64,000 bases of DNA from Natronorubrum halophilum (GTDB lineage Archaea; Halobacteriota; Halobacteria; Halobacteriales; Natrialbaceae), in the NCBI RefSeq assembly GCF_003670115.1, contig NZ_QQTY01000003.1, forward strand, positions 620,001-684,000, given 5' to 3'. Positions 1,548 through 18,688 of this stretch are shown here, one piece after another. A program made the translations under genes and the position numbers. Numbering within the stretch: the stretch's first letter is position 1; every line of letters starts with the position of its first letter. Under the pieces are notes generated by a model. It saw only the letters and a program-made list of their open reading frames with translations, searched no databases and was not told the origin of the DNA.

Positions 1548-1943
1548 TCATTGCTCGTCGTCCCGGATGACCATCACCTTGACCCGATTTACGCCGTCAA
1601 AGTCGCGGAGTCGGTAGGTGAGGTTACGTACCTGCTCGACTGGTCCCCGACAAAACAGTGATTCGAGGCACCACTCCCCTTGGTGCGTATGACTCGTATT
1701 GAGAATAACGTCTTGGTACCCGTGTTGGACTGCGTGGAGTTCCTGTATCACCTCGTGGTGGCGATAATCGAACGCGACGAGCGCGACGATCTCCCCGCTT
1801 GTCTCTTCAAGGCGGGAGTGAGACTCGATGTATTCCAGCATCGCTTCTCGGACCGCTCGCGACCTGTTTTCGAGGTCCTGTTCTTGCCAGACTCGGTCGA
1901 ACTCTTCGACTACTTCGTCTGGAATATTGAAACTCGTTCGCAT
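1548..1943 (-). CDS. nikR: NikR-type nickel-responsive ribbon-helix-helix regulator
   Basis: This 131-residue protein has the two-domain NikR layout. An N-terminal ribbon-helix-helix (residues 1-45, MRTSFNIPDEVVEEFDRVWQ) is followed by an ACT-like metal-binding domain. The nickel-site residues are in place: His74, His85, His87 (SHTHQGEWC) and Cys92, although the His87-Cys92 spacing is one residue shorter than in E. coli NikR. The family represses or activates nickel transport genes when nickel is bound. The gene is divergent from a NicO-type nickel/cobalt transporter 103 bases away, which supports the assignment. The start ATG at 1943 directly precedes the beta strand that contacts DNA. Confidence 0.9.
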   Translation of the reverse strand: MRTSFNIPDEVVEEFDRVWQEQDLENRSRAVREAMLEYIESHSRLEETSGEIVALVAFDYRHHEVIQELHAVQHGYQDVILNTSHTHQGEWCLESLFCRGPVEQVRNLTYRLRDFDGVNRVKVMVIRDDEQ

Positions 1944-2046
1944 AGTTACTGGCTCGTCGGGATTCTACAAGAAGTTCTCGTATGACGATTCACCCATTTC
2001 GGTATTAACAACCGTTATTCACGTCGGTAGCAGATTCTCAACCAGG
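1944..2046. promoter_or_regulatory. Shared divergent promoter of nikR and the NicO-type transporter
   Basis: This 103-base spacer separates the two divergent start codons. A GTATGA hexamer at 1980-1985, matching the left half-site of the bacterial NikR box, is followed after 16 bases by GTATTA rather than the expected TCATAC, so a classical operator is not proven. TAAC-N4-GTTA (about 2005-2016) is another small dyad. AT-rich stretches suited to TATA boxes lie near 2000-2010 for the transporter. Confidence 0.5.
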
Positions 2047-2874
2047 ATGTTACACGGCGAAGCACTCGGTCTCTTGCTTGGAGCGGTCGCTCTCGGTGCC
2101 GTTCATGGCATCGAACCAGGTCACGGATGGCCCGTTGCCGCTTCGTACGCTCTCGACCAGACGAACAAGTGGGTGTACGGGTTCGCGGCGAGTCTCATCA
2201 TCGGCGTCGGCCACCTTATCAGCAGTATCGCGATGGTGGGTGTGTTCTTCTACGCGAAGGACTACTTCAACCTCACGCAGGTCAACGAACCGATGACGAT
2301 ACTCGGTGGTATCCAAATCGGCGGGCCAGTCAGTCTTGTTGCCGGTGTCCTACTCATCATGCTTGGGATTCGTGAATACTCCCACGGGCATTCTCATGGC
2401 AGTCACGATGATGGCCACTCCGACCATCACAGCCACGACCACCAACACGATCTGAACGAGCATTCCACCCATTCTCACGAGCAGGGCCATTCGCACGACC
2501 ACAACGATGGACTAATCACCCGTTTGAAAGGCTTCGTTCCCTTCGTCGGTGGGCACTCCCACTCACACGATGACCCGGAAGAGACCGCTGACCGTGGCCT
2601 CCTCGGGATCGCGTGGTTCGCATTCGTTCTCGGGTTCGCCCACGAAGAGGAGTTCGAGATTATTGCGCTGTGTGCCGGGTCAAACCACTGCCTCGAACTG
2701 ATGAGTGCGTATGCCCTCACCGTCATCGTGGGTATCGTCGGATTGACGATGCTGTTGATTGCAGGCTACCAGCACTCCGAGGAGAAAGTCGAGCAGTACA
2801 CGCCGTACCTCCCAGCATTTTCCGCAGCTGTCCTCATCATCATGGGATTTGCTTTCATCATTGGGGTATTCTGA
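2047..2874 (+). CDS. NicO/RcnA-type nickel-cobalt transporter with His-rich loop
   Basis: A 275-residue polytopic membrane protein, probably moving Ni2+ or Co2+ across the cell membrane. Helix 1 carries GAVHGIEPGHGW, the His-containing signature seen in this superfamily. A second signature-like segment, GFAHEEEFEIIALC, lies after the central loop. Between the third and fourth membrane segments is a long cytoplasmic-type loop (about residues 110-170) packed with His and Asp (HGHSHGSHDDGHSDHHSHDH and similar), a likely metal-binding buffer. The ATG at 2047 was preferred over an in-frame start at 1828 because the latter would overlap nikR and add non-membrane sequence. Divergence from nikR suggests nickel control. 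Whether it is uptake or efflux cannot be decided from sequence. Confidence 0.85.
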   Translation: MLHGEALGLLLGAVALGAVHGIEPGHGWPVAASYALDQTNKWVYGFAASLIIGVGHLISSIAMVGVFFYAKDYFNLTQVNEPMTILGGIQIGGPVSLVAGVLLIMLGIREYSHGHSHGSHDDGHSDHHSHDHQHDLNEHSTHSHEQGHSHDHNDGLITRLKGFVPFVGGHSHSHDDPEETADRGLLGIAWFAFVLGFAHEEEFEIIALCAGSNHCLELMSAYALTVIVGIVGLTMLLIAGYQHSEEKVEQYTPYLPAFSAAVLIIMGFAFIIGVF

Positions 2875-3121: not shown

Positions 3122-3196
3122 ATGGACTCAATTCAGGACCGACTCGCTCGAGAAGTATCTTCTCTCGAGTTTCTGCAGTCAGCGAATGATCTGTGA
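3122..3196 (+). CDS. Possible 24-residue leader ORF overlapping the next start
   Basis: ATG at 3122 opens a short acidic frame beginning MDSIQDRLAREVSSLEF and ending with TGA at 3194-3196. That stop overlaps the GTG start at 3193 (GTGA), the arrangement typical of translational coupling. This favours the GTG as the start of the next gene. There is no family match, so it may be a chance ORF. Confidence 0.3.
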   Translation: MDSIQDRLAREVSSLEFLQSANDL

Positions 3197-3486
3197 GTAA
3201 GAAAATGGTGAAGCGAACTACCACTACGACTATTTCGGTTATGCCCGCCGACGCCCTGTTTCTCAGTTGGGCGACCGGTATTAACGCATCGGGGCTATTC
3301 CGCGAGGCACTCGCCGAGCAGATGACGTACCGTAACATCGAGCGAGACAGGCTCGTCGCACTCATCGAAGAAGCACTCCGCGATGAAGATCGTGATCTCG
3401 ACGACCTGATCGACCAGACCTCGTGCCTCGAGGACCTCGAAAACATCCTCAACACACCAAACGTCAACTCAGTTTCCCATGAGTAA
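3193..3486 (+). CDS. Small hypothetical protein, first full gene of the T4SS-like operon
   Basis: A 97-residue protein without a family I recognise. The N-terminal part (PADALFLSWATGINASGLFREALAEQM) has an amphipathic helix. The C-terminal half is acidic (LIEEALRDEDRDLDDLIDQT) and probably helical. GTG at 3193 overlaps the stop of a possible leader ORF; ATG at 3205 is an alternative start. The stop overlaps the start of the next gene by 8 bases, so it belongs to the same transcription unit. The NASGLFREALAEQMTYRNI section could be a small DNA-binding or dimerisation helix, but no function can be assigned. Confidence 0.55.
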   Translation: MSKKMVKRTTTTTISVMPADALFLSWATGINASGLFREALAEQMTYRNIERDRLVALIEEALRDEDRDLDDLIDQTSCLEDLENILNTPNVNSVSHE

Positions 3487-3964
3487 TCGTTCATCCCCCA
3501 CGGCGACTGAATCGTCCAGTGAACACCCCGCTACCAACGAGAAGTCCCCTACGTCTCGTAAAGCGAGACTGCGAGTGCAGTTGCTTTCCACCTCTATTCC
3601 ACCACAGCTTGTCTCACTCGCGACTGGACTCCTCTTGTTAATTGTTGCAGTAGGTCCAGCTACGGCTCAAAGCGATGTCGGAGACGTTTACTGCGGCACC
3701 GGCGTTGAGACTGGTATCGGGATTGTTTTCGGTGCGATTGCTGGACTCGGGCTCCCTGCAACGGGCTTCTACGTTTGTCGAGCAGGCCTCTCGTACATGC
3801 GTGCGGGTGGGAACCCTGAGAAAAAGAACAACGCCAAAGAGCGGCTAGTTATGTCTGGTATTGGGTTCGGCATCATCGTTCTCGCCCTCATCTCGCCCGA
3901 ACTCATCGACAACGTCGGAAGCCAGATGGGATTCGACTTTTCCAGTTGTGTCAAACCATTCTGA
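3479..3964 (+). CDS. VirB2/TrbC-like pilin candidate (membrane protein)
   Basis: A 161-residue protein with a hydrophilic Ser/Thr-rich N-terminus of about 45 residues, then a signal-like hydrophobic segment ending GPATAQSDV (cleavage plausible after residue ~64). Two closely spaced membrane helices follow (ETGIGIVFGAIAGLGL..., and LVMSGIGFGIIVLALIS), separated by a positively charged loop with Lys and Arg. Signal plus two helices with a basic loop is the layout of VirB2/TrbC conjugative pilins. One cysteine in the mature N-terminus and one at the C-terminus might pair. The neighbours are VirB6-like and VirB4-like genes, which supports the reading. There is no sequence-level proof; another small membrane protein remains possible. 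Confidence 0.5.
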   Translation: MSNRSSPTATESSSEHPATNEKSPTSRKARLRVQLLSTSIPPQLVSLATGLLLLIVAVGPATAQSDVGDVYCGTGVETGIGIVFGAIAGLGLPATGFYVCRAGLSYMRAGGNPEKKNNAKERLVMSGIGFGIIVLALISPELIDNVGSQMGFDFSSCVKPF

Positions 3965-4006
3965 ATTCTGCCATATTCGAACACAACCTCTCACACCACA
4001 TTGTCG

Positions 4007-5770
4007 ATGACCATACTCCGCCCGGTGATCGTTGTCGTCCTCCTCGTTACGAGTAGTCTCATCATTGGGCTGATGGACACCACAGCATCCGCCTCACCAG
4101 ATGCGAACTCGAGTACAGCGCTCCCCATGGACGGTCCTGATTATGGTATCAACGAGTCTCGGTTTCAGCTGTTGTGGTCGGAAGATACAGATCAGGCGAA
4201 CCTCTCGAGTGACGATCTAACAGAGAACGCGTCCTCGCCTGCGGAGTTCTCACAGGACCTCTCGCGATCGACGGACTACCTGTTCGACGACCCGATCGAG
4301 GATGTCGAACGTTGGAATAGCGGTGACTTCGACGACTACGCCGCTGGTGATGAAGAGACATCGATCCACCCCGAGGCAGCAGCCCTTGAGAATGGACGCT
4401 TCATCAAAGATGCACACAGCAGCATTTTCGCAGTCAACCCGCCGACGGTTCTCCAGTCAGGGAACGAGTCGACGACGTATATCGCGCCGGAGGGTGAGGT
4501 TCTCGCGGTATCCGATTACCGAGTCGCAGTGCCAGACGACAGTGAGAGCAGACCAGTACGGGACGAATGGTCGCTCGAGGAGACCGATCTCGAGAGTATC
4601 AGCCTCGAGGCTGATGGCCAGCAACTCGATTCCAACGCAAGCCATCGGTCGCTCCTCGAGTACAGCAGCCTGTCAGGCGACCCAACGCTAGCAGTTGAAG
4701 CAGAGATCTCCGCTCAACTTCGTCAGCAGGAGCGGACGTGTGACGAGTATAATCAGAGCACGGACTCCTGTGAGGGTTCGTGGGAGACAGAAATCAACCA
4801 CCCCTCCGAACAGTTCACAGTAACTGACTCGGTCAACATCACTGTCAATCGAGTCGACACCGCCGATGGAAACCAGACGGCATTCGAAGCCGATGACGAG
4901 CAGACTGGCGCTGTCGTTCACCCAGGCACTGTCTGGTCAGGGATCGATATCGACGACAACACACAGGTTCGCGGGAATTGGCGCTTCTATTCCTCAGGTA
5001 CAGACGGATGGCACACGATGGTCTCACGCACCGAATCAGGCGCGACTCGAACGAATTCTACCGTTCGTCCGGCGCAACTCTACGCGGTACCAATGCAGGC
5101 GGAACCAGACGTGGCGGGTAGCGCGGCCGATACTGTCGAACCACCACTCGAGATCGAAGACGCTTGGGGGAGTGAACATCAGGGTCCGTCTCTCGGTGAC
5201 GACATCGACGTTACGCCTGTCAATCAGTACGTGAATACGTCGTCCGTTGCACTGCAGTCGGAATCCCTCGCAGCAGATTCGTTCGACACGGTGACCGTTC
5301 ACGGAATCGTTCGCGGCCAGTCACAATCAGTCTCGCTCGAGAACGAAGGGACTGTTCGCGAAACGAATCTCAAACTGACCGTTCTCGAGGCCAATTCCTC
5401 GGGAGCGGTCGTCGAAGCAGTAGTTACGGAAAACGCGACTGGAGAACCGGTGACGACCGGACGCGTGGAAGTCGGCAACCAATCAGCTCCCGTCAACGCC
5501 AGTGGAATGGCCCGCCTCCAACTCGAGGAGCGACCATCGCTCCTGGTCGATGGAACGTACGTTGCTGAGGATTGGTGGCGTGCGGAGACGATGTACGCTA
5601 GCGCAGAGAATCGGGCAAAGATCCCACCGAAATATCCGAATTTTGCTCAACTCGTCGAGTTAGCGCTCGTGACGCTGCTCTGGTTCCTACCAGTTATTCT
5701 GGCCGTCTACGGGTTTGACTACCTGACTGACGGCACGTTCCTTGGACTTACAGATACCGATGACAGATAA
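4007..5770 (+). CDS. Large secreted, C-terminally membrane-anchored surface protein of the T4SS-like operon
   Basis: A protein of about 587 residues with an N-terminal signal segment (ILRPVIVVVLLVTSSLIIGLM, start MTILRP), a long hydrophilic acidic extracellular region with many Asn-X-Ser/Thr sites, and a single C-terminal membrane helix (LVTLLWFLPVILAVYGFDYL) with a short acidic tail. It contains a CDEYNQSTDSC motif that could form a small disulfide loop, and a carboxypeptidase-like or Ig-like segment near residues 475-500 (GEPVTTGRVEVGNQSAPVN). The ATG at 4007 is preferred to TTG at 4001. The family is not recognised; its place between pilin-like and VirB6-like genes suggests an envelope or mating-pair component. 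The stop overlaps the next start by 11 bases. Confidence 0.7.
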   Translation: MTILRPVIVVVLLVTSSLIIGLMDTTASASPDANSSTALPMDGPDYGINESRFQLLWSEDTDQANLSSDDLTENASSPAEFSQDLSRSTDYLFDDPIEDVERWNSGDFDDYAAGDEETSIHPEAAALENGRFIKDAHSSIFAVNPPTVLQSGNESTTYIAPEGEVLAVSDYRVAVPDDSESRPVRDEWSLEETDLESISLEADGQQLDSNASHRSLLEYSSLSGDPTLAVEAEISAQLRQQERTCDEYNQSTDSCEGSWETEINHPSEQFTVTDSVNITVNRVDTADGNQTAFEADDEQTGAVVHPGTVWSGIDIDDNTQVRGNWRFYSSGTDGWHTMVSRTESGATRTNSTVRPAQLYAVPMQAEPDVAGSAADTVEPPLEIEDAWGSEHQGPSLGDDIDVTPVNQYVNTSSVALQSESLAADSFDTVTVHGIVRGQSQSVSLENEGTVRETNLKLTVLEANSSGAVVEAVVTENATGEPVTTGRVEVGNQSAPVNASGMARLQLEERPSLLVDGTYVAEDWWRAETMYASAENRAKIPPKYPNFAQLVELALVTLLWFLPVILAVYGFDYLTDGTFLGLTDTDDR

Positions 5771-6631
5771 CAATCCAACTCACGAGAGTCGTATCGCTCG
5801 CCGATCAGTCCTTGCCACCATCGGACTCAGTACCGCCGGTCTCGCAGGCTGTACGTCGGACTCAGATTCAGAGCCTGCGAACAACAGTACGGAGGACGGC
5901 TCTGGACTCAACACCGAAGACAGCGATGTCTTCACGAACGTCGAGATGAACGACGAGAGTCTTGAGGTCGGACTGGGGAGAGTTCGACCGAATTCATCAA
6001 CCTCGTCGACCCAGATGGCGAGTTATTCGATCAGGCTCGTCTCGAGGATAACGGCACCGAAGTCTCGTTCGAGATCCTCGGCAGGTTCGAAGACGATATC
6101 GCCACTGGTGAGTATGAACTCGTCGCCCTCGAGAGTCTTGAAGCCGATGAAGCGATTGACTCGACGACGATCACGCTCGATGCAAAGTGCACAATCACCG
6201 ACGTGCTCTGGGCGGCAGAGAATCCCGAGATGGACTGGGAGAAGGAGTCCACCATCTGGAATGAATATGCTGCTGTCGTCATCGAAAACAAGGGAACGAT
6301 TCCGTCCTTACTCAGTGAACTCGAGTGGGCAGGAGCTCCAGTTGCTCACCTTCAATCGAAGGACGCCCAATCATACTATCACGAAGTACGTTTGCCACCT
6401 GGAGAGACAACTGTCTACTCTGCGGATTCGGTATACGGTACCGAGGGAGCCGTGCATTCACTCGACTGTGGAGAACTCGAGATAGAACCAATGACTGTGA
6501 CAGCGATCACTCAGGTTGGGCCTGACCCATCGTATACTCAGGAAATCAAATATGGTGATGGACAGTCGTGTGAGCTATCTATTGCTGAGGGGAGCCCCGG
6601 TGAATCGATTTCTGGTGGGGGTGAAAACTGA
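5760..6631 (+). pseudogene. Tat lipoprotein of the T4SS-like operon, broken by one frameshift
   Basis: ATG at 5760 begins a Tat lipoprotein signal: ARRSVLATIGLSTAGLAGC with a lipobox cysteine, then an Asp/Ser-rich linker. The frame is protein-like to about 5972 (NDESLEVGLG). It then loses coding character while a second frame takes over with GESSTEFINLVDPDGEL and runs to the stop at 6631. Restoring one G in the run at about 5973-5977 joins both parts into a lipoprotein of about 290 residues. The C-terminal half looks like an immunoglobulin-type beta domain (HEVRLPPGETTVYSADSVYG). Function is unknown. It is either a pseudogene, a homopolymer sequencing error, or, less likely, programmed slippage. 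Confidence 0.7.
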
Positions 6632-7840
6632 ATGCCATGGCTGCAGGACCAGGTCGAAGATGGGATTAAGAACGTTCTCCAAGACTTGACTGATGCGCTT
6701 CTTGGTCTTGCAAATGACATCTATGAGGCGCTCTTAAGCCCAATTGTCGGTGTTCCAACCCCGGAATCAGACTCTGGGTATATGGTCGTCAGTACGCCGG
6801 ATAATGCACCATGGGATAGTCTGTACCAGGATGTCTATCTGGCGTATATTATGCCGTTAGCGATCATGCTGATTGTGATCGCGTTCGCGTTCATTGGACT
6901 TCGTGCAGGGTCGATGAGTGCGTATCGTCGAAAGCGCCTCATGAGACGGTTAGGGATCGTGTTCATGGGAACGTTCGTCTGGTTCCCGTTAGTCTCGATC
7001 CCGCTGCAGTTCATCGATGCAATCGGGATGACGATCGCCCCAGTAGAGGATATGTCTGCAGGGCTCGATGGCCTCATTCAGTCCTCTCTTGGAGGTATGT
7101 TTACAATTTTGGCGATGGTCGTGATCTCAAATTTTTTCTTAGTAGTTGCAGGATTCGTCGTTGCTCTTCGCTGGATTGCAGTCTGCATACTGACCCCCTT
7201 GATGCCACTCTTGGGTGTCCTCTGGGCGCTCGATGTCTGGCCGTTTAGTCCAGCTGCGAATATGGCACGTCAAGCTGCCGGGATTTACCCTGGGTTAGTA
7301 CTTGCAGGAATCCCACCGGCGATCCTGTTCCGGTTTGGATGGGAAGTTGGCGGTCTCGAGTCCTCTGTGAAGGGGCTGTTTTCGCTCTTCATCGGCTTGA
7401 TGTTGATTCCCGCGGCAATCCTCGCGATGATCATGACCGTCTACTGGAGTAGCCCCGCCGTTCGAACGATCGCTCAGAAGAGCGTTACTGCAACGAACCC
7501 AGCATCGGCTGCTGCTGGTGCTAGTAAAGCAAAAGCTGCCTCTGGGAGTGCCGTACGCGGCGCTCGAAACGTTCATCGTGGCTATGCCAACGGGAAATTC
7601 GGCCCAGTAACGAAAAGCGGTCAGACGAAACTCGGGGGCAGTAGCTCGAAAGCATACAAACTCGGCAAATCAGCGAACTCGACGAGGGCGCACGCCAGTC
7701 AGTACAATACACTGCGGAAATCGGATTCAGGCCGAATACGCGACAAAGCCAAAGATGACGCCAAACGCGCCACACGGAAAACATCGGCCAAAGCCAAGCA
7801 AGGGCTCCGAAACACGAAAGAAAAGGTCTCGAGGTGGTAA
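6632..7840 (+). CDS. VirB6/TrbL-like polytopic membrane protein
   Basis: A 402-residue protein with an amphipathic N-terminus (DQVEDGIKNVLQDLTDALLG) followed by about six to seven membrane helices between residues 65 and 275, and a long basic Lys/Arg/Ser/Ala-rich cytoplasmic tail (about 285-402). An N-terminal periplasm-facing region, clustered helices and a basic tail are what VirB6/TrbL-type inner-membrane channel proteins show. Archaeal Ced/Ted-type DNA transfer systems carry similar components. The start directly follows the stop of the lipoprotein gene (TGAATG), and the stop lies 5 bases before the ATPase start, so these are co-transcribed. The assignment rests on topology and neighbours, not on conserved motifs. 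Confidence 0.6.
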   Translation: MPWLQDQVEDGIKNVLQDLTDALLGLANDIYEALLSPIVGVPTPESDSGYMVVSTPDNAPWDSLYQDVYLAYIMPLAIMLIVIAFAFIGLRAGSMSAYRRKRLMRRLGIVFMGTFVWFPLVSIPLQFIDAIGMTIAPVEDMSAGLDGLIQSSLGGMFTILAMVVISNFFLVVAGFVVALRWIAVCILTPLMPLLGVLWALDVWPFSPAANMARQAAGIYPGLVLAGIPPAILFRFGWEVGGLESSVKGLFSLFIGLMLIPAAILAMIMTVYWSSPAVRTIAQKSVTATNPASAAAGASKAKAASGSAVRGARNVHRGYANGKFGPVTKSGQTKLGGSSSKAYKLGKSANSTRAHASQYNTLRKSDSGRIRDKAKDDAKRATRKTSAKAKQGLRNTKEKVSRW

Positions 7841-7845
7841 TCGTT

Positions 7846-10023
7846 ATGAGTTCGAATACAGCAGATAGCGAGTACAATGCACGAAAGATTCACCAATCGC
7901 TAGGCGGCACGACAGCGTTCTTCCAGGGCTACACGATTGGCGAACTCATGCTGTTTCTCACAGTCGCGTTCGTCACCGTCATCGTAGCGACGTTCGTTCC
8001 ATCCGCGCTCACGATCCCGATCCTCGGATTCGGATGTATGTGCACGATTCTCCTCTTCTTGCTTCACAAGGTCAAGCCTGATTACCTCTGGCTCACCGAG
8101 TGGCTCGTCGCTCGATTCGGGTGGGCGATCAAAAACAAGGAGTACACGCATGGCGGGGAGGACAACAGCGAAGTCCGCTATTTGACCCGTCTCAATCGAG
8201 TGTACCCACACGCCATCGAACGAACTGACGGTGCACTTGTCGGAGCCATGAAAGTCGAGCCGGCGAATATGGCCCTCGAGGATGATGACGCCTGGGCGAA
8301 GGCCGTCAAGTCACTCTCGGAGTTCGTGAATTCGACTGTCGACTTCTCCGTGAAGATCTACATCACTAGCCGCGAGGTTGATCAAGACGACGTCGTTCGC
8401 GAACATCAAAATCGGCTTGGCGATGCTGACGTTCGCTCACGGCCAGTTCTGAAACGCCTTCTCGAAGAGTACGTCGCAGCTAATACTAACGAAAACGGAG
8501 ATTTGGACTCTGAGACGACCACGATCCGCGAGTACTATCTCATCACCGCGGTGACCGACAGCGACATCGAGCAGGTCGACGAAACCGGTGACAGCGTTCT
8601 AGCTTACCTTGCAGATGTACCAGCTCTTGGACGACTCTTCGGTCGCTTTCAATCTGAGGGGTTGAGTGAGTCCAGACGAGACCAGCTCAAAGAAGAGAAG
8701 CTAGAATCGCGACTCGCGCAACTCCGACGTGGTGGGTCGTCGCTCTATCGGTGTTCGATCAGCCCCGTCGACGCGTATGACCTCGCTCGAGTCACGAAGG
8801 AGTACTGGACGTGCCAGTCGCAAGATTACGCTGATATGACGAATGCGATTGGGACGTTCCCAGTCATCTCTCACGGCATCAGCGATGGTGTGCCAGCAAC
8901 GCCAGATCCAGAGGATGTCATTGGTTCGATGGACAACAGCAGTGACGAATCTGAGGACTGGGAGTACTCCCTCGAGGATCTCGATGAAGAAGACGACGCC
9001 TCATCAGTCTCTTCGGAGAATCGTCTTCCAGACGCGTCGACGATGCACCAGTCAGTTATCGCGCCGTCGACGATCGATTGGGAAACAACCTACGCCGTGA
9101 TCAACGACGAGACGTTCGTTCGCACGTTTTGGATCGAGCAGTTCCCCGAAGAACCGTCGGATGGACTCCTCGAGAGGCTCTTACTCGAGACCGATCTACA
9201 GACGGATCTCAGTATCCACCTCGACCCATTCGATAGCCAATCGGCTCAGGATATGATGGCAGATTGGATTTCGGACTTGAAGATCAACCAGCACGATTCG
9301 AACAGTCTCAAAGCAGAAGATCTGCAGGAAGATATCGACCAGGCGAAGTACATGCGCTCGCTCGTTCGAGCGAATAAAGCCTCGTTCTACCGAGGTGGTG
9401 TGTTCATTCGACTCGCAGCCGAGAGCCAGCAGGAACTCGAGAATCAGACGACCCGGTTACGGTCGATTATCAAGGACGCACCAGCTAACTGTACGCTCAA
9501 AGTCGCCAGTCGATGGCAGGAACGCGGGCTTGCGACCGTCTCGCCCCTAGGGAGGAACGAACTCGGTCGCGATCGCATGCCGACGCTGACCAATCAGGCC
9601 ATTGGCGCGATGTTTCCGTTCTCATCGAACTACCAGATGATGGACGACGGTATCGAGTACGGCTATCACGGACACAACGGCTCTCCAATCCGAATCAACC
9701 CGTGGGACCTCGAGACCGGGCATAGCGAACTCGTTGTCGGGATGCCTGGCGCTGGAAAGACGTTCGGTGGGATCATGCGCCACCTGCGGATGATGAAGCG
9801 TCGGAACGACACGATGCTCGTTCTTATCGATCCCGTTGGTGGCTTTCGAGGGATTGCCGACGCACTGAACGCCAAAACGATCACTGTCGGTGGCGACACG
9901 AAAATAAACCCACTCGACACGTCCGCAGCAATTGACGGCCGATCCGATCATCATTGTCGAGCAGTACGTCCCTATCGTCATCACGCCGACAGTCTTGCAT
10001 GCACTTGCACTCCAGGAAGTTGA
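7846..10023 (+). pseudogene. VirB4/TraC-like conjugation ATPase, C-terminally truncated
   Basis: The open frame encodes 725 residues. Two membrane helices near the N-terminus (about residues 25-70) precede a VirB4-like N-domain and an acidic insertion (about 365-395). The ATPase domain follows, with Walker A GMPGAGKT at residues 632-639 and DTMLVLIDPVGGFRGI shortly after. Homologous character ends after GGDTKINPLD near 9920; the rest of the frame (GRSDHHCRAVRPYRHH) is out-of-frame sequence. Walker B and the whole C-terminal half of the motor are missing, so the protein cannot be a working ATPase. A VirB4 motor would energise pilus assembly or DNA transfer. ATG 7846 was chosen just after the upstream stop at 7840. 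Confidence 0.75.
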
Positions 10024-10318
10024 CGAGGACGTCGAGTATTTCATGGACCGCTACGGTGCTGGCAAACTCGTCGCTGCGCTGCGAGGTGCAGGGCTGCACT
10101 TCGCAGGGAAGACGACCCAGCGGATAGTCGCGACCGATATCGACGTTCGCGACACCGAAGCGATGATGATCATCTACGCGCTCGAGCCAGCGCTGACTGT
10201 TGGCCGGACACATGATCCGTTCTTCGAGCATCTGTTTCCGGATGTCCACGATCAGATGGATCTTTCTTCCCTTGACGAGGGAGATGGGGCCTCAACAGAG
10301 GCAGATTCCCACGAGTGA
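9932..10318 (+). CDS. Open frame of unknown family joined to the broken VirB4-like gene
   Basis: A frame different from the VirB4-like one is protein-like from about 9911 (ADPIIIVEQYVPIVITPTVL, then MDRYGAGKLVAALRGAGLHF) to TGA at 10316-10318. The only start is TTG at 9932, and the sequence seems to begin in mid-protein, so this is probably the 3' part of another gene fused by deletion. It contains AGLHFAGKTTQRIVATDIDV, which looks like neither a Walker motif nor a known catalytic site. The same section, from MDRYGAGKL onward, recurs in a decayed copy at 35986-36116. I do not recognise the family. Confidence 0.45.
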   Translation: MTADPIIIVEQYVPIVITPTVLHALALQEVDEDVEYFMDRYGAGKLVAALRGAGLHFAGKTTQRIVATDIDVRDTEAMMIIYALEPALTVGRTHDPFFEHLFPDVHDQMDLSSLDEGDGASTEADSHE

Positions 10319-10389: not shown

Positions 10390-10695
10390 ATGTCGAGTAG
10401 TACTCGAGACCCAGAGGTCGTACGCGTCTCGCAAAAGGGACAGGCAACGATCCCGAAGACGCTCCGAGAGAAGTTCGGGATCGACACCCCTGGTGAGGTG
10501 TTCATTTACGAGGAAGACGAGCGAATCATTGTCGAACCGGTTCCGTCGCTCGAAGAATTAGGCGGGATTCACGCCGATACTGACCGCGAGCGTGGCGACG
10601 TACTCGAGCGGGTTCGCGAACTGAAACACGAGGAACGGCAGCGTGAAGAGGCCCGTGCTGACCGAGTCCGACCAGCTGACTCGGAGGATGAATGA
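10390..10695 (+). CDS. vapB: AbrB/SpoVT-type antitoxin (VapB-like)
   Basis: A 101-residue protein with an N-terminal swapped-hairpin AbrB domain (residues ~9-50: VVRVSQKGQATIPKTLREKF, then GEVFIYEEDERIIVEPV), the DNA-binding part of this antitoxin class. The C-terminal half is a charged helix rich in Glu and Arg (RVRELKHEERQREEARADR), the expected toxin-wrapping segment. The stop overlaps the start of the PIN-domain gene by 4 bases (ATGA), the classic toxin-antitoxin arrangement. It is expected to neutralise the downstream toxin and repress its own promoter. Confidence 0.88.
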   Translation: MSSSTRDPEVVRVSQKGQATIPKTLREKFGIDTPGEVFIYEEDERIIVEPVPSLEELGGIHADTDRERGDVLERVRELKHEERQREEARADRVRPADSEDE

Positions 10696-11129
10696 GCGAC
10701 CGGTACGTCTTTGACACCGAAGCGATCATCGCATATCTCTACGACGAGCCAGGTCGGAGCGTCGTCGAAGAGTATCTTCGAGACGTTCGCGACGGGGCTG
10801 TCGAAGGGGTGCTGGCAGAAACCAACGCTGGTGAAGTACTCTATCTCGTTGCACGCTTCGAAGGAATTGGCGATAAACCCACGACAGACTCACTTCGGAC
10901 CGCCGATCGCGATCTCCGTGCGCTTGAGCGGTGGGGGATTCAAATCGAACGAGCTGACTGGCGGCTTGCCGCCGAGGTGAAGGCGGATGGTCACATTTCG
11001 TTCGCGGACGCCCATGGCGTTGCACTCGCCCACGAGAGGGATGCGACACTCATCGCCGGTGCTGATGACGACTTCGAGACGCTTTCGGTCGATGTCGACG
11101 TAGTCCGGTTTCGTGAGGATGGTGTATGA
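10692..11129 (+). CDS. vapC: PIN-domain ribonuclease toxin (VapC-like)
   Basis: A 145-residue PIN-domain protein. The first acidic metal ligand is Asp8 in YVFDTEAIIAYL. A second acidic residue lies in ETNAGEVLYL (about residues 43-52). A third cluster is in HISFADAHGVALAH, followed by LIAGADDDFETL. PIN toxins cleave RNA with Mg2+ or Mn2+ and are inhibited by the cognate antitoxin. All expected acidic positions appear intact, so the pair looks functional. A decayed copy of this gene lies at 36104-36451. Confidence 0.88.
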   Translation: MSDRYVFDTEAIIAYLYDEPGRSVVEEYLRDVRDGAVEGVLAETNAGEVLYLVARFEGIGDKPTTDSLRTADRDLRALERWGIQIERADWRLAAEVKADGHISFADAHGVALAHERDATLIAGADDDFETLSVDVDVVRFREDGV

Positions 11130-16337: not shown

Positions 16338-16992
16338 ACCGTTCAACGTGGTTTAAGACATCTTCATAGAAGTATGCATAGTTCTGCAGCCATGTTTCGG
16401 CGGTTGCTGGATCGGTGTTTCGGAAATAGTTTCCAAACTGTGAGGTACGTCGTTTTATCTCTTGGAGGAGACGTTTGACGACGTTGCGATTTCCGTGTCG
16501 TTCGTATTGAAATCGGAGCCTGTGTCGGTGGAGTGCAGCTTGTAGCCAGGGAGCAGAATCGACGGGAAACACGGCGTTCTCGACGTCGTGTTCCTCGGCG
16601 AGTTCCGAGAGAAAGATCGAGGTAACGCCTTCGTTTCTGGTCATAAAGAGCCTGACGTGGAGGAACTCGTTCGTCTCGGGATCGACAGTAGCGTACAGCC
16701 AGTAGCGTTCGGTATTGAGTTTGATCACGGTTTCGTCGAGCGCTACGTGATCCGGACTCCGTTCGGTGGCCGGCTGTAACTCGGCCTTTTGCACCCAATT
16801 ATGGACGGGCGATCGTGCACGCTCGACACCGAAGCTCTCCAGTACAGATACAGTATTCAAAAATTATAATTCATGCAGATGGAGCTGAATACTGAGCCGC
16901 ATTAACTCACGCTGTGTCGCTTCGCGCTCCACAAACTCTAACTGAATCTCGGTGCTAGATCCAGTGAGACGGGTCGATTCAGGCACGGACAC
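16285..16992 (-). pseudogene. IS6-family transposase with an internal stop codon
   Basis: The DDE transposase is readable as DHVALDETVIKLNTERYWLY, then VDPETNEFLHVRLF, FPVDSAPWLQAALHRHRLRF and HGNRNVVKRLLQEIKRRTSQF. Upstream, the same reading frame continues as EFVEREATQRELMRLSIQLH to a GTG start at 16986 or 16992, but a TAA at about 16865-16867 splits the gene. The C-terminus runs past the usual WLQxxA end through the element boundary into the OB-type gene and stops at 16285. The enzyme is therefore inactive unless the nonsense codon is read through. Confidence 0.75.
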
Positions 16993-17040
16993 CTCGAATT
17001 CCACCGCCTCACTCCTTCAAACTCTTATCTGAACAGCACC
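16338..17040. mobile_element. IS6-type insertion sequence relic
   Basis: The element carries the broken transposase. One terminal repeat is visible as ACTCTTATCTGAACAGCACC at 17021-17040 (read inward, GGTGCTGTTCAGATAAGAGT), like IS6 ends. The opposite end near 16338 (ACCGTTCAACGTGG) is only weakly similar, so that boundary is degraded or approximate. No target duplication was confirmed. It interrupts the OB-fold-type gene. The 289 bases between 17041 and the AtoE gene show nothing recognisable. Confidence 0.6.
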
Positions 17041-17329
17041 GCGCCGTCGGGAATCGGTACGGACGAGCGGAGAGGCGGACGATGGAGCGATGATTCGAGT
17101 GCTTTCAAACTATTTCAGTCACACCAAACAGTCGACAGCTCCATCGAGGCTCCAAGCCATCGCTGGGGCAATACTACAAACTAACCCCGACTCTCCTTGC
17201 TATGGTAGTTGCTTTATAACACCCCTCTCGTTTACCCCTTACCTGAGAGTGACCATCAGTAGTGAAACAGAAACGTACCACCCAACTCCCTGGAGTTCGT
17301 CTCTACAGTGAAACAAAACAAAGGATCGA

Positions 17330-18688
17330 TCAGACGATTCCAAGCATCGGGAAGAGCAGCGTAATACTGCCAGCCACCAGTCCGTAGCCGATTAGCACCA
17401 TAAGAACGTATCCCCAGATGTCTCGAACCTGCAATCCAGCGATACCGAGAACGGGCAGCGCCCAGAATGGGTTGAGGAGGTTCGTCCAGACGTCACCGAC
17501 GGTATAGGCCGAGACGATAACTGCGTGTGAAACCCCCATGCTCTCCGCGGCGGGGTGCAGAAATTCGGCGGTGACGATATACTGACCACCACCCGACGGG
17601 ACGAACACGTTGACGATTCCGGTCATGAACCACGTGAAGAAGGGGAATGTTTCCGCTGAAGAAACACCCGTGATGGAATCAATGAGAATCGTTGTGAGTC
17701 CGGTTCCGATCAAGATCCCCTGGATACCACCGTAGAAGGGGAACTGAAGAATCACTTGTCCGCATCGCTCCGCGGCATCGGTTATCGATTTGGCGTAGCT
17801 GACTATGTTCTTGTGGAGTCCGATACCGATTATGAGGAATATCAGATTCATCGTATTGAGTTCCAACATCTGGAACGCTCCCTCTGAGATGATCAGCCAG
17901 ATAGAAATGGATCCGCCTAGTAAAACGATACCGGTATTAAACAATCGCGAACCGTTGAAACGACCTGCGATCGTCGTCGAATCGAAGTCCTGGTGGTATT
18001 CCGGAAGCAGTTCGTCTACTCGCTCCTCGGGGAGTGGATCCGTATTCTCCTGCGTCGGATACGTGAAGTAGATTATCACGAGCAACAAGAGGAAAACACC
18101 CCACACGATCGATAAATGGAACAGACTAAATATCGTTTCGTTAAGCGGAATGAGCCCGATCTGATCTTCCATGAAGTGATCGGGCGTGTTTACCAACAGG
18201 GGCGCCGTCTGTGATATCGAGCCGGCGGAACCGACCGTCGCTCCAGAGTACGCCATCGCGACGGTGTATCCGAAATCGATATCGTCCCGTTCTTTCCCGA
18301 GGAAAATCGCGTAGAGCGAGACGGAGACTAGCCCGAGTCCCCAGTGGATGAGGGTGACGAAGAATCCGAAGATTGCAATCGAGAAGTATGCTTGCAAAGG
18401 AGTATTCGGGATGCGAACTAATTTACTAATAATGCGTCTCGTGATTGGTGCAGAAGCAATACCGTATCCTGTCACAATTATGACAACTAGTTGCATCGCG
18501 AATTCGAGGAAGCCCCAAAACTCGTTGTTCCACTCGATGACAATTTGAGATGGGCCCGTAGATGTCAGCAGGAGTGCTGCTACGTATGCCGCGAACGTTA
18601 GAATGATCGCGAAAACGAACGAGTGCGGCATATACTTTTCAATACCAACATTAAATCTATTTGCCATTTGCTTGAGTATGTTTGGCAT
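17330..18688 (-). CDS. atoE: AtoE-type short-chain fatty acid transporter
   Basis: A 452-residue integral membrane protein with about 11-12 helices, of the AtoE/TIGR00366 short-chain fatty acid transporter family. Family-like landmarks include YMPHSFVFAIILT at the N-terminus, GSAGSISQTAPLLVNTPDHF, FYGGIQGILIGTGL, the VNVFVPSGGGQYIVTAEF block and DVWTNLLNPFWALPVLGIAG. Members import short-chain acids such as acetoacetate or butyrate. It is the first gene of a catabolic island with CoA-handling enzymes and a ketone-carboxylase-like set, so acetoacetate-type acids are a sensible cargo. Upstream sequence is AT-rich with several TATA-like stretches. Confidence 0.88.
   Translation of the reverse strand: MPNILKQMANRFNVGIEKYMPHSFVFAIILTFAAYVAALLLTSTGPSQIVIEWNNEFWGFLEFAMQLVVIIVTGYGIASAPITRRIISKLVRIPNTPLQAYFSIAIFGFFVTLIHWGLGLVSVSLYAIFLGKERDDIDFGYTVAMAYSGATVGSAGSISQTAPLLVNTPDHFMEDQIGLIPLNETIFSLFHLSIVWGVFLLLLVIIYFTYPTQENTDPLPEERVDELLPEYHQDFDSTTIAGRFNGSRLFNTGIVLLGGSISIWLIISEGAFQMLELNTMNLIFLIIGIGLHKNIVSYAKSITDAAERCGQVILQFPFYGGIQGILIGTGLTTILIDSITGVSSAETFPFFTWFMTGIVNVFVPSGGGQYIVTAEFLHPAAESMGVSHAVIVSAYTVGDVWTNLLNPFWALPVLGIAGLQVRDIWGYVLMVLIGYGLVAGSITLLFPMLGIV

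What the first reader, a model, noticed from the sequence alone, without database searches (positions are those of the whole stretch)
3193..10318. Remnant of a haloarchaeal T4SS or DNA-transfer cluster
One operon contains, in order, a pilin-like protein (signal plus two helices with a basic loop), a large anchored surface protein, a lipoprotein, a VirB6-like polytopic protein with a basic tail, and a VirB4-like ATPase with Walker A. This parallels conjugation machineries and archaeal Ced/Ted-type systems. The surface protein and lipoprotein are of no family I know and may be archaeal-specific mating components.
Basis: partly seen in the sequence, partly recalled or inferred. Interest (0 to 1): 0.65.

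Follow-up and report, generated by a model that had tools for sequence, protein, structure and literature searches.

The report
Broken copy of haloarchaeal conjugation operon
This stretch is the front half of a plasmid DNA-transfer (type IV secretion) operon of a salt-loving archaeon, inactivated by a deletion, while an intact copy sits on another plasmid-like contig of the same genome and relatives with two undescribed surface proteins occur in more than half of the haloarchaeal genomes sampled.

Summary
Window 3479-9917 encodes a VirB2-like pilin, an anchored surface protein, a Tat-type lipoprotein, a TrbL/VirB6 protein and the first ~694 codons of a VirB4 ATPase. As a machine it is dead: the lipoprotein has a 4-bp frameshift, and VirB4 stops after Walker A at a ~10.7 kb deletion that also removed the ~380-aa protein and the VirD4-like coupling protein. 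ORF 9932-10318 is the stump of a downstream regulator gene, not a T4SS gene. An intact copy lies on a 165-kb circular contig (C6) of the same genome.

In 94 of 100 haloarchaeal loci the order pilin, surface protein, lipoprotein, VirB6, VirB4, coupling protein is kept; five of the other six run into contig ends. The surface protein occurs in 214 of 391 haloarchaeal genomes, 208 of them with VirB4. Surface protein and lipoprotein are therefore standing components. No relaxase was found. Unresolved leads: the surface protein's N-terminal domain recurs in type IV pilus operons of another family, and half of the coupling proteins carry a domain with an invariant D...E-x-E. Transfer itself is inferred.

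The parts
3193..3486 (+). Small ORF (97 aa) upstream of the pilin, ribbon-helix-helix-like by eye; function unknown
   Evidence: No Pfam/NCBIfam/PHROG match. The DNA from ~2955 matches the stretch upstream of the pilin on Natrinema sp. DC36 plasmids at ~91%; a small ORF sits in this place in L010-L012, L014, L015.
3479..3964 (+). VirB2-like T4SS pilin (161 aa), ORF intact
   Evidence: Pfam T4SS_pilin 4.6e-10, above cut-off; 6 of 9 family members match it; three hydrophobic stretches, the first a signal-like segment.
4001..5770 (+). Surface protein (589 aa): N-terminal hydrophobic segment, acidic extracellular part with 15 N-glycosylation sequons, C-terminal membrane helix; ORF intact
   Evidence: Alignments A1/A5/A9; topology; no Pfam, NCBIfam, PHROG or PDB-sequence relative.
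5763..6631 (+). Tat-type lipoprotein gene, frameshifted (pseudogene); an intact relative models as two Ig-like beta-sandwich domains
   Evidence: 4-bp deletion near 5970 against L004; intact in L004 6546-7439; AlphaFold model of the L022 relative, pLDDT 71, pTM 0.62.
6632..7840 (+). TrbL/VirB6-like polytopic membrane protein with basic tail (402 aa), ORF intact
   Evidence: Pfam TrbL_3 48.1 bits vs cut-off 23; 5 of 8 members match.
7834..9917 (+). VirB4 ATPase, 5' part only: N-terminal membrane domain, middle domain and Walker A (9739-9762); Walker B and C-terminal half deleted. Likely start ATG 7846
   Evidence: 97% aa identity to the intact 1101-aa C6 VirB4 over 695 aa; NCBIfam VirB4 matches; homology ends at 9917.
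9912..9917 (.). Deletion junction (within these 6 bases)
   Evidence: Left side matches pHTS138 up to 6536, right side from 17257 on, 10.7 kb apart on the same strand.
9912..10318 (+). 3' stump of a helix-turn-helix/DUF7437 regulator gene, brought next to virB4 by the deletion; not a T4SS gene
   Evidence: Pfam DUF7437 6e-22; collinear with pHTS138 HTH gene 16962-17642.
10390..11129 (+). AbrB/MazE-like antitoxin (10390-10695) and PIN toxin (10692-11129) pair flanking the remnant; not part of the T4SS
   Evidence: Pfam MazE_antitoxin and PIN; same order downstream of the intact T4SS on pHTS138.

Best explanation
It is the promoter-proximal half of a plasmid conjugation operon of a haloarchaeal T4SS family. 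The ancestral plasmid carried pilin, surface protein, lipoprotein, VirB6, VirB4, a ~380-aa protein and a VirD4-like coupling protein, as on C6 of this genome and on pHTS138. A ~10.7 kb deletion fused the middle of virB4 to a downstream regulator gene, and a 4-bp deletion broke the lipoprotein gene (both shown by comparison). In intact copies (inferred) the coupling protein hands DNA to VirB4, which feeds it through the VirB6 channel, while VirB2-like pilin builds a pilus or conduit. The surface protein and the lipoprotein, both outside the membrane, form the extracellular collar that takes the conduit through the S-layer and/or grips the partner cell, doing the job that outer-membrane and tip proteins do in bacteria (inferred). 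The window copy has neither a complete VirB4 nor a coupling protein and cannot transfer DNA by itself.
For: Component families above curated cut-offs: pilin, VirB6; coupling protein TraG-D_C 25.8/22, TrwB_AAD_bind 22.4/20.5, T4SS-DNA_transf 20.2/20.1. Intact 1101-aa VirB4 E 4e-53 to a VirB4-like conjugal ATPase family. Intact copy on C6. Order kept in 94/100 loci; components present: pilin 100, lipoprotein 100, VirB6 98, VirB4 98, coupling protein 95. Genome level: 208 of 214 surface-positive genomes also have VirB4, odds ratio ~100. Deletion junction mapped by collinearity with pHTS138 and Natrinema sp. DC36. dN/dS against C6 0.04-0.23, i.e. the two copies diverged under purifying selection and the decay is recent. 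Coupling protein found only on C6 in this genome.
Against: No transfer experiment exists for this family in what I read. No relaxase family PF03432 or PF13814 in this genome, so DNA processing is unexplained. The collar/adhesion role rests on topology, position and Ig-like folds only; the surface model was unusable (pLDDT 40) and the lipoprotein fold is generic. The frameshift and the deletion could not be checked against reads.
Confidence: 0.87

Rival explanations
1. The intact family is not a conjugation system but a protein- or effector-exporting T4SS, or an antagonistic weapon, carried by plasmids.
For: No relaxase found in this genome; the lipoprotein is fast-evolving (median identity 0.40 and 0.59 in the two subgroups), as for parts exposed to partners.
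Against: Most sampled loci lie on plasmid-sized contigs; a VirD4-like coupling protein is nearly always present; archaeal plasmids shown to be conjugative, such as pT33-3, also lack a known relaxase (PMC12857230); pNG500, one member (L013), was scored as a conjugative plasmid in PMC3158045.
Confidence: 0.12
2. A domesticated Ced/Ted-like DNA import or exchange system.
For: Same minimal core VirB2/VirB6/VirB4 as described for Ced and Ted in PMC9905601.
Against: Mainly on plasmid-sized contigs, present in only about half of the genomes, several copies per genome in some, with its own VirD4-like coupling protein. No Ced/Ted sequence relationship was tested.
Confidence: 0.06
3. The remaining window genes still do something useful, for example entry exclusion against related plasmids or spare parts for the C6 machine.
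For: Pilin, surface protein and VirB6 ORFs are open and show low dN/dS; VirB6 and lipoprotein regions differ most from the C6 copy.
Against: The lipoprotein is broken and VirB4 lacks Walker B; low dN/dS mostly reflects the time before the decay.
Confidence: 0.1

Closest known systems
Haloarchaeal plasmid VirB4/T4CP systems placed in MPF_FATA (Guglielmini et al. 2011, PMC3158045; includes pNG500)
   Same: pNG500 carries the same order pilin, surface protein, lipoprotein, VirB6-like protein, VirB4 and a coupling protein (L013 is a row of A1-A4 and A6).
   Different: In the passages found in that paper I saw no surface protein or lipoprotein named; most members here have no recognised relaxase typing and PLSDB lists them as non-mobilizable.
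Ced and Ted systems of Thermoproteota (PMC9905601, PMC11868833)
   Same: VirB2-like pilin, VirB6-like channel, VirB4-like ATPase.
   Different: No surface protein or lipoprotein of this kind is reported in the passages read; the haloarchaeal family has a VirD4-type coupling protein and sits mostly on plasmids.
Gram-positive and mycoplasma ICE T4SS (CD1110, Mbov_0395/Mbov_0397 families)
   Same: Nearest curated relatives of VirB4 (E 4e-53, 2e-46) and of the pilin (NF045849, 7e-8, below cut-off).
   Different: All below equivalog cut-offs; no relative of the two extracellular partners was found among curated families.
Thaumarchaeal integrative conjugative elements (PMC6563490) and fsx1-carrying haloarchaeal elements (PMC9259645)
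   Same: VirB4 and VirD4/TraG, with VirB6 in the thaumarchaeal elements, on archaeal mobile elements.
   Different: Surface protein and lipoprotein not described in the passages read; gene content around the ATPases differs.
Archaeal type IV pilus operon of family f15 of the same phylum (G412, G581, G601)
   Same: Last gene is a distant homologue of the surface protein's N-terminal domain (hhalign probability 97.5, E 6e-12).
   Different: The machine there is a T2SSE ATPase plus TadC-type pilus, not a T4SS.

Membership tests
Conjugative T4SS, MPF_FATA-like | VirB4 ATPase with Walker A and B | tested here: met
   Met for the intact family (C6, 1101 aa; NCBIfam VirB4 families). The window copy keeps Walker A only.
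Conjugative T4SS, MPF_FATA-like | VirB6/TrbL polytopic channel protein | tested here: met
   Pfam TrbL_3 above cut-off.
Conjugative T4SS, MPF_FATA-like | VirB2-type pilin | tested here: met
   Pfam T4SS_pilin above cut-off.
Conjugative T4SS, MPF_FATA-like | VirD4-type coupling protein in the same locus | tested here: met
   95 of 100 loci; Pfam cut-offs passed for the C6 copy. Absent from the window copy.
Conjugative T4SS, MPF_FATA-like | Relaxase | tested here: inconclusive
   No PF03432 or PF13814 match in this genome; other relaxase families not tested; archaeal conjugative plasmids are known to lack recognised ones (PMC12857230).
Conjugative T4SS, MPF_FATA-like | Demonstrated cell-to-cell plasmid transfer | not testable with these tools
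   Needs mating experiments.
Conjugative T4SS, MPF_FATA-like | VirB4 falls in the FATA clade of a VirB4 tree | not tested
   No VirB4 tree was built; the placement of archaeal VirB4 in FATA is from PMC3158045.
Ced/Ted DNA import systems | CedA/CedA1/CedB or TedA/TedC/TedB orthology | not tested
   No Ced/Ted sequences were compared; only the shared VirB2/VirB6/VirB4 roles are known.
Ced/Ted DNA import systems | Domesticated, no VirD4-type coupling protein | tested here: not met
   Coupling protein in 95 of 100 loci, mostly on plasmid-sized contigs.

The most novel reading that the evidence does not exclude
Haloarchaeal conjugation uses an archaeal-type outer assembly, the surface protein plus the lipoprotein, as an S-layer portal for the mating pilus. 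The surface protein's core domain is a filament-base module also used by an archaeal type IV pilus, and the missing relaxase is replaced in about half of the systems by a nuclease-like domain (invariant D...E-x-E) fused to the coupling protein.
Probability: 0.15. Interest if true: 0.8.

Novelty: new variant of a known kind. Interest (0 to 1): 0.5.

Why it matters
How haloarchaeal plasmids move between cells is open: the well-studied route in Haloferax is cell fusion, and a 2025 T4SS review lists archaeal conjugative plasmids with only VirB4 and VirD4 homologues and no relaxase (PMC12857230). A fixed seven-gene locus with two defined extracellular partners, present in over half of the haloarchaeal genomes sampled and on plasmids of tractable species (pNRC100 of Halobacterium salinarum carries part of one), makes conjugation in haloarchaea directly testable and names candidates for the outer part of the machine. 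The window copy itself is an ordinary decayed relative.

Tried and rejected
AlphaFold of the surface protein with 11 sequences: pLDDT 40, not searched further. Fold search of the lipoprotein model: generic tandem Ig-like matches; the best Z values (8-9) are hardly above common background, and a match to an archaeal pilus subunit (8fk7, Z 8.5) is within that noise. PDB sequence search with profiles of surface protein, pilin, VirB4, VirB6 and the coupling-protein C-terminal domain: no meaningful relatives, so no sequence sign that the surface protein is a fusexin; the fold was not tested. Viral contigs: no relative of the surface protein. Alignment A1 was too diverse for a genome-contig scan, so the closer A5 was used. 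Two copies on C6 turned out to be one locus plus a 9,623-base identical terminal repeat of a circular contig. The idea that ORF 9932-10318 is a further T4SS gene was rejected. Several first calls failed for a wrong frame of the broken lipoprotein gene.
Full report
WHAT IS THERE. The window is bases 620001-684000 of a 708-kb contig (C3) in a 4.67-Mb genome of 8 contigs. On the + strand from 3479 lies a compact operon: a pilin (3479-3964), a 589-aa protein with an N-terminal hydrophobic segment and a C-terminal membrane helix (4001-5770), a Tat-type lipoprotein (from 5763), a polytopic protein with a basic tail (6632-7840) and a VirB4-like ATPase (7834 or ATG 7846 onwards). The pilin and the polytopic protein exceed Pfam's curated cut-offs for T4SS_pilin and TrbL_3. 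The ATPase matches NCBIfam VirB4 families.

IT IS A REMNANT. The same genome holds an intact copy on contig C6. That contig ends in an identical 9,623-base repeat of its start, so it is a circle of 165,494 bases. Window 3674-9917 is 89% identical to it in DNA. Against C6 the window lipoprotein gene lacks 4 bases near 5970 and is out of frame from there. T4SS homology stops at 9917 in the relatives listed. From 9912 the window matches DNA that on Haloterrigena salifodinae pHTS138 lies 10.7 kb further downstream on the same strand, inside a helix-turn-helix gene followed by AbrB and PIN genes. On Natrinema sp. DC36 plasmid unnamed3 the two stretches are also collinear. The simplest reading is one deletion that removed the C-terminal half of VirB4 with Walker B, the ~380-aa gene, the coupling-protein gene and some downstream genes. 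ORF 9932-10318 is the stump of the regulator. The coupling protein occurs only on C6 in this genome. NG86 dN/dS between window and C6 is 0.04 (pilin), 0.23 (surface), 0.14 (VirB6) and 0.04 (VirB4 part), so both copies were under constraint for most of their divergence and the decay is recent. Identity is mosaic: mostly 88-98% over the surface gene and VirB4, but ~70-82% over 6157-7380 (lipoprotein C-terminal half and VirB6 N-terminal half), which suggests past recombination.

THE INTACT FAMILY. In PLSDB the surface protein is found in 122 plasmids; the ten most frequent genera and all 40 records listed are haloarchaeal, and all are typed non-mobilizable. VirB4 is found in 380, including bacterial ones. 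Annotated relatives show one plan: small ORF, pilin, surface protein, lipoprotein, VirB6, VirB4, ~380-aa protein, coupling protein; pNRC100 of Halobacterium salinarum carries pilin, surface protein and lipoprotein but no annotated VirB4 beside them. Of 391 haloarchaeal-class genomes, 214 have the surface protein and 253 have VirB4; 208 have both, 6 the surface protein only, 45 VirB4 only. I fetched one surface-protein locus from each of 100 genomes and searched all ORFs with profiles of each component. Pilin and lipoprotein were there in 100, VirB6 in 98, VirB4 in 98, coupling protein in 95, all six in the fixed order in 94; of the rest five run into contig ends and one lacks VirB6. These loci were taken from the strongest matches, which favours intact ones, and they are not phylogenetically independent. 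Weaker haloarchaeal matches that were opened (L179, L180, L182) still lie beside VirB4. The N-terminal membrane part of VirB4 is fused in 24 loci and a separate gene in 74; its hydrophobic N-terminal stretch suggests a VirB3-like role (inference). The coupling protein passes three Pfam cut-offs. Seven of the 100 loci lie on chromosome-sized contigs (C1 of 2.7-3.9 Mb: G106, G002, G068, G058, G101, G043, G208), as expected of integrated elements.

THE TWO EXTRACELLULAR PARTNERS. The lipoprotein model (pLDDT 71) shows two beta-sandwich domains of Ig type, matched only generically. Among pilin, surface protein, lipoprotein, VirB6 and VirB4 it is the most variable in both subgroups (median identity 0.40 and 0.59, against 0.78 and 0.88 for VirB4); in the split group the coupling protein (0.48) varies more. 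The surface protein could not be modelled and has no known relative in Pfam, NCBIfam, PHROGs or PDB sequences. In the wider phylum (295 genomes) its profile found four loci in three genomes of another family. In each the homologue follows a Big_1-containing pilin-like gene and a T2SSF/TadC gene; in three of the four loci a T2SSE-type ATPase gene (or its relative) is seen upstream, and in the fourth the stretch ends before that point. Profile-profile comparison gives 97.5% probability, E 6e-12 over residues 84-277, against 0.3% for the lipoprotein as control. In the reverse direction the profile of those homologues finds 41 surface proteins and nothing else among all ORFs of the 100 T4SS loci. 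Only 3 of 55 genomes of that family have it. A protein that serves both a type IV pilus and a T4SS is most simply something that helps a filament cross or hold on to the S-layer. That is inference. S-layer-like genes in archaeal pilus loci are already known in general (PMC4858521).

MECHANISM. Shown: components, order, lesions, distribution. Inferred from the families: coupling protein and VirB4 drive DNA through VirB6 while pilin forms a conduit. Inferred from topology and synteny only: surface protein and lipoprotein form the outer collar or adhesin. Missing: the DNA-processing step. No Relaxase (PF03432) or Replic_Relax (PF13814) match exists in this genome. In 50 of 100 loci the coupling protein carries a C-terminal domain in which 19 of 120 columns are invariant; the only invariant acidic residues are one D and an E-x-E (46 distinct sequences, median identity 0.55). 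That pattern recalls restriction-enzyme-like nucleases (from memory, not tested; no PDB or Pfam match).

COMPARISON WITH THE LITERATURE. Archaeal VirB4 with coupling proteins and without relaxases was noted in 2011 and pNG500 was scored as conjugative (PMC3158045); it belongs to this family. Ced and Ted share VirB2/VirB6/VirB4 (PMC9905601). A 2025 review names only VirB4 and VirD4 for conjugative archaeal plasmids (PMC12857230). In the passages I read and the searches I made I found no description of the surface protein and lipoprotein as T4SS components; subscription papers and preprints were not searchable.

Noticed in passing
L004:15016-15375 (C6 coupling protein, C-terminal domain): Domain with invariant D...E-x-E in 50 of 50 coupling proteins that carry it; nuclease-like by eye and a candidate for the missing nicking step.
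   Followed up: partly
L175-L178 (G581, G601, G412): Distant homologues of the surface protein close a type IV pilus operon (T2SSE, Big_1 pilin-like, T2SSF) in three genomes of another family of the phylum.
   Followed up: partly
window 6157-7380: Identity to the C6 copy falls from over 90% to ~70-82% across the lipoprotein C-terminal half and the VirB6 N-terminal half, then rises again: recombination or fast evolution of parts that may meet the partner cell.
   Followed up: partly
G000 contig C6: 175,117-base contig with identical 9,623-base ends, so a circular 165,494-base plasmid assembled with terminal overlap; it doubles any gene count made there.
   Followed up: yes
window 1548-2874: CopG/NikR-like regulator and a histidine-rich membrane protein, ~92% identical to a plasmid of Haloterrigena turkmenica and matched apart from the T4SS: a second module, so the region is a mosaic of plasmid pieces.
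   Followed up: partly
L180 (G316:C1:346932-365330): Divergent chromosomal T4SS with a 713-aa surface protein and a 976-aa VirB6-like protein in the same order, no lipoprotein match.
   Followed up: no
L009:15326-16510 and equivalents: The ~380-aa protein between VirB4 and coupling protein matches only PHROG 5156 of unknown function (E 5e-11).
   Followed up: no
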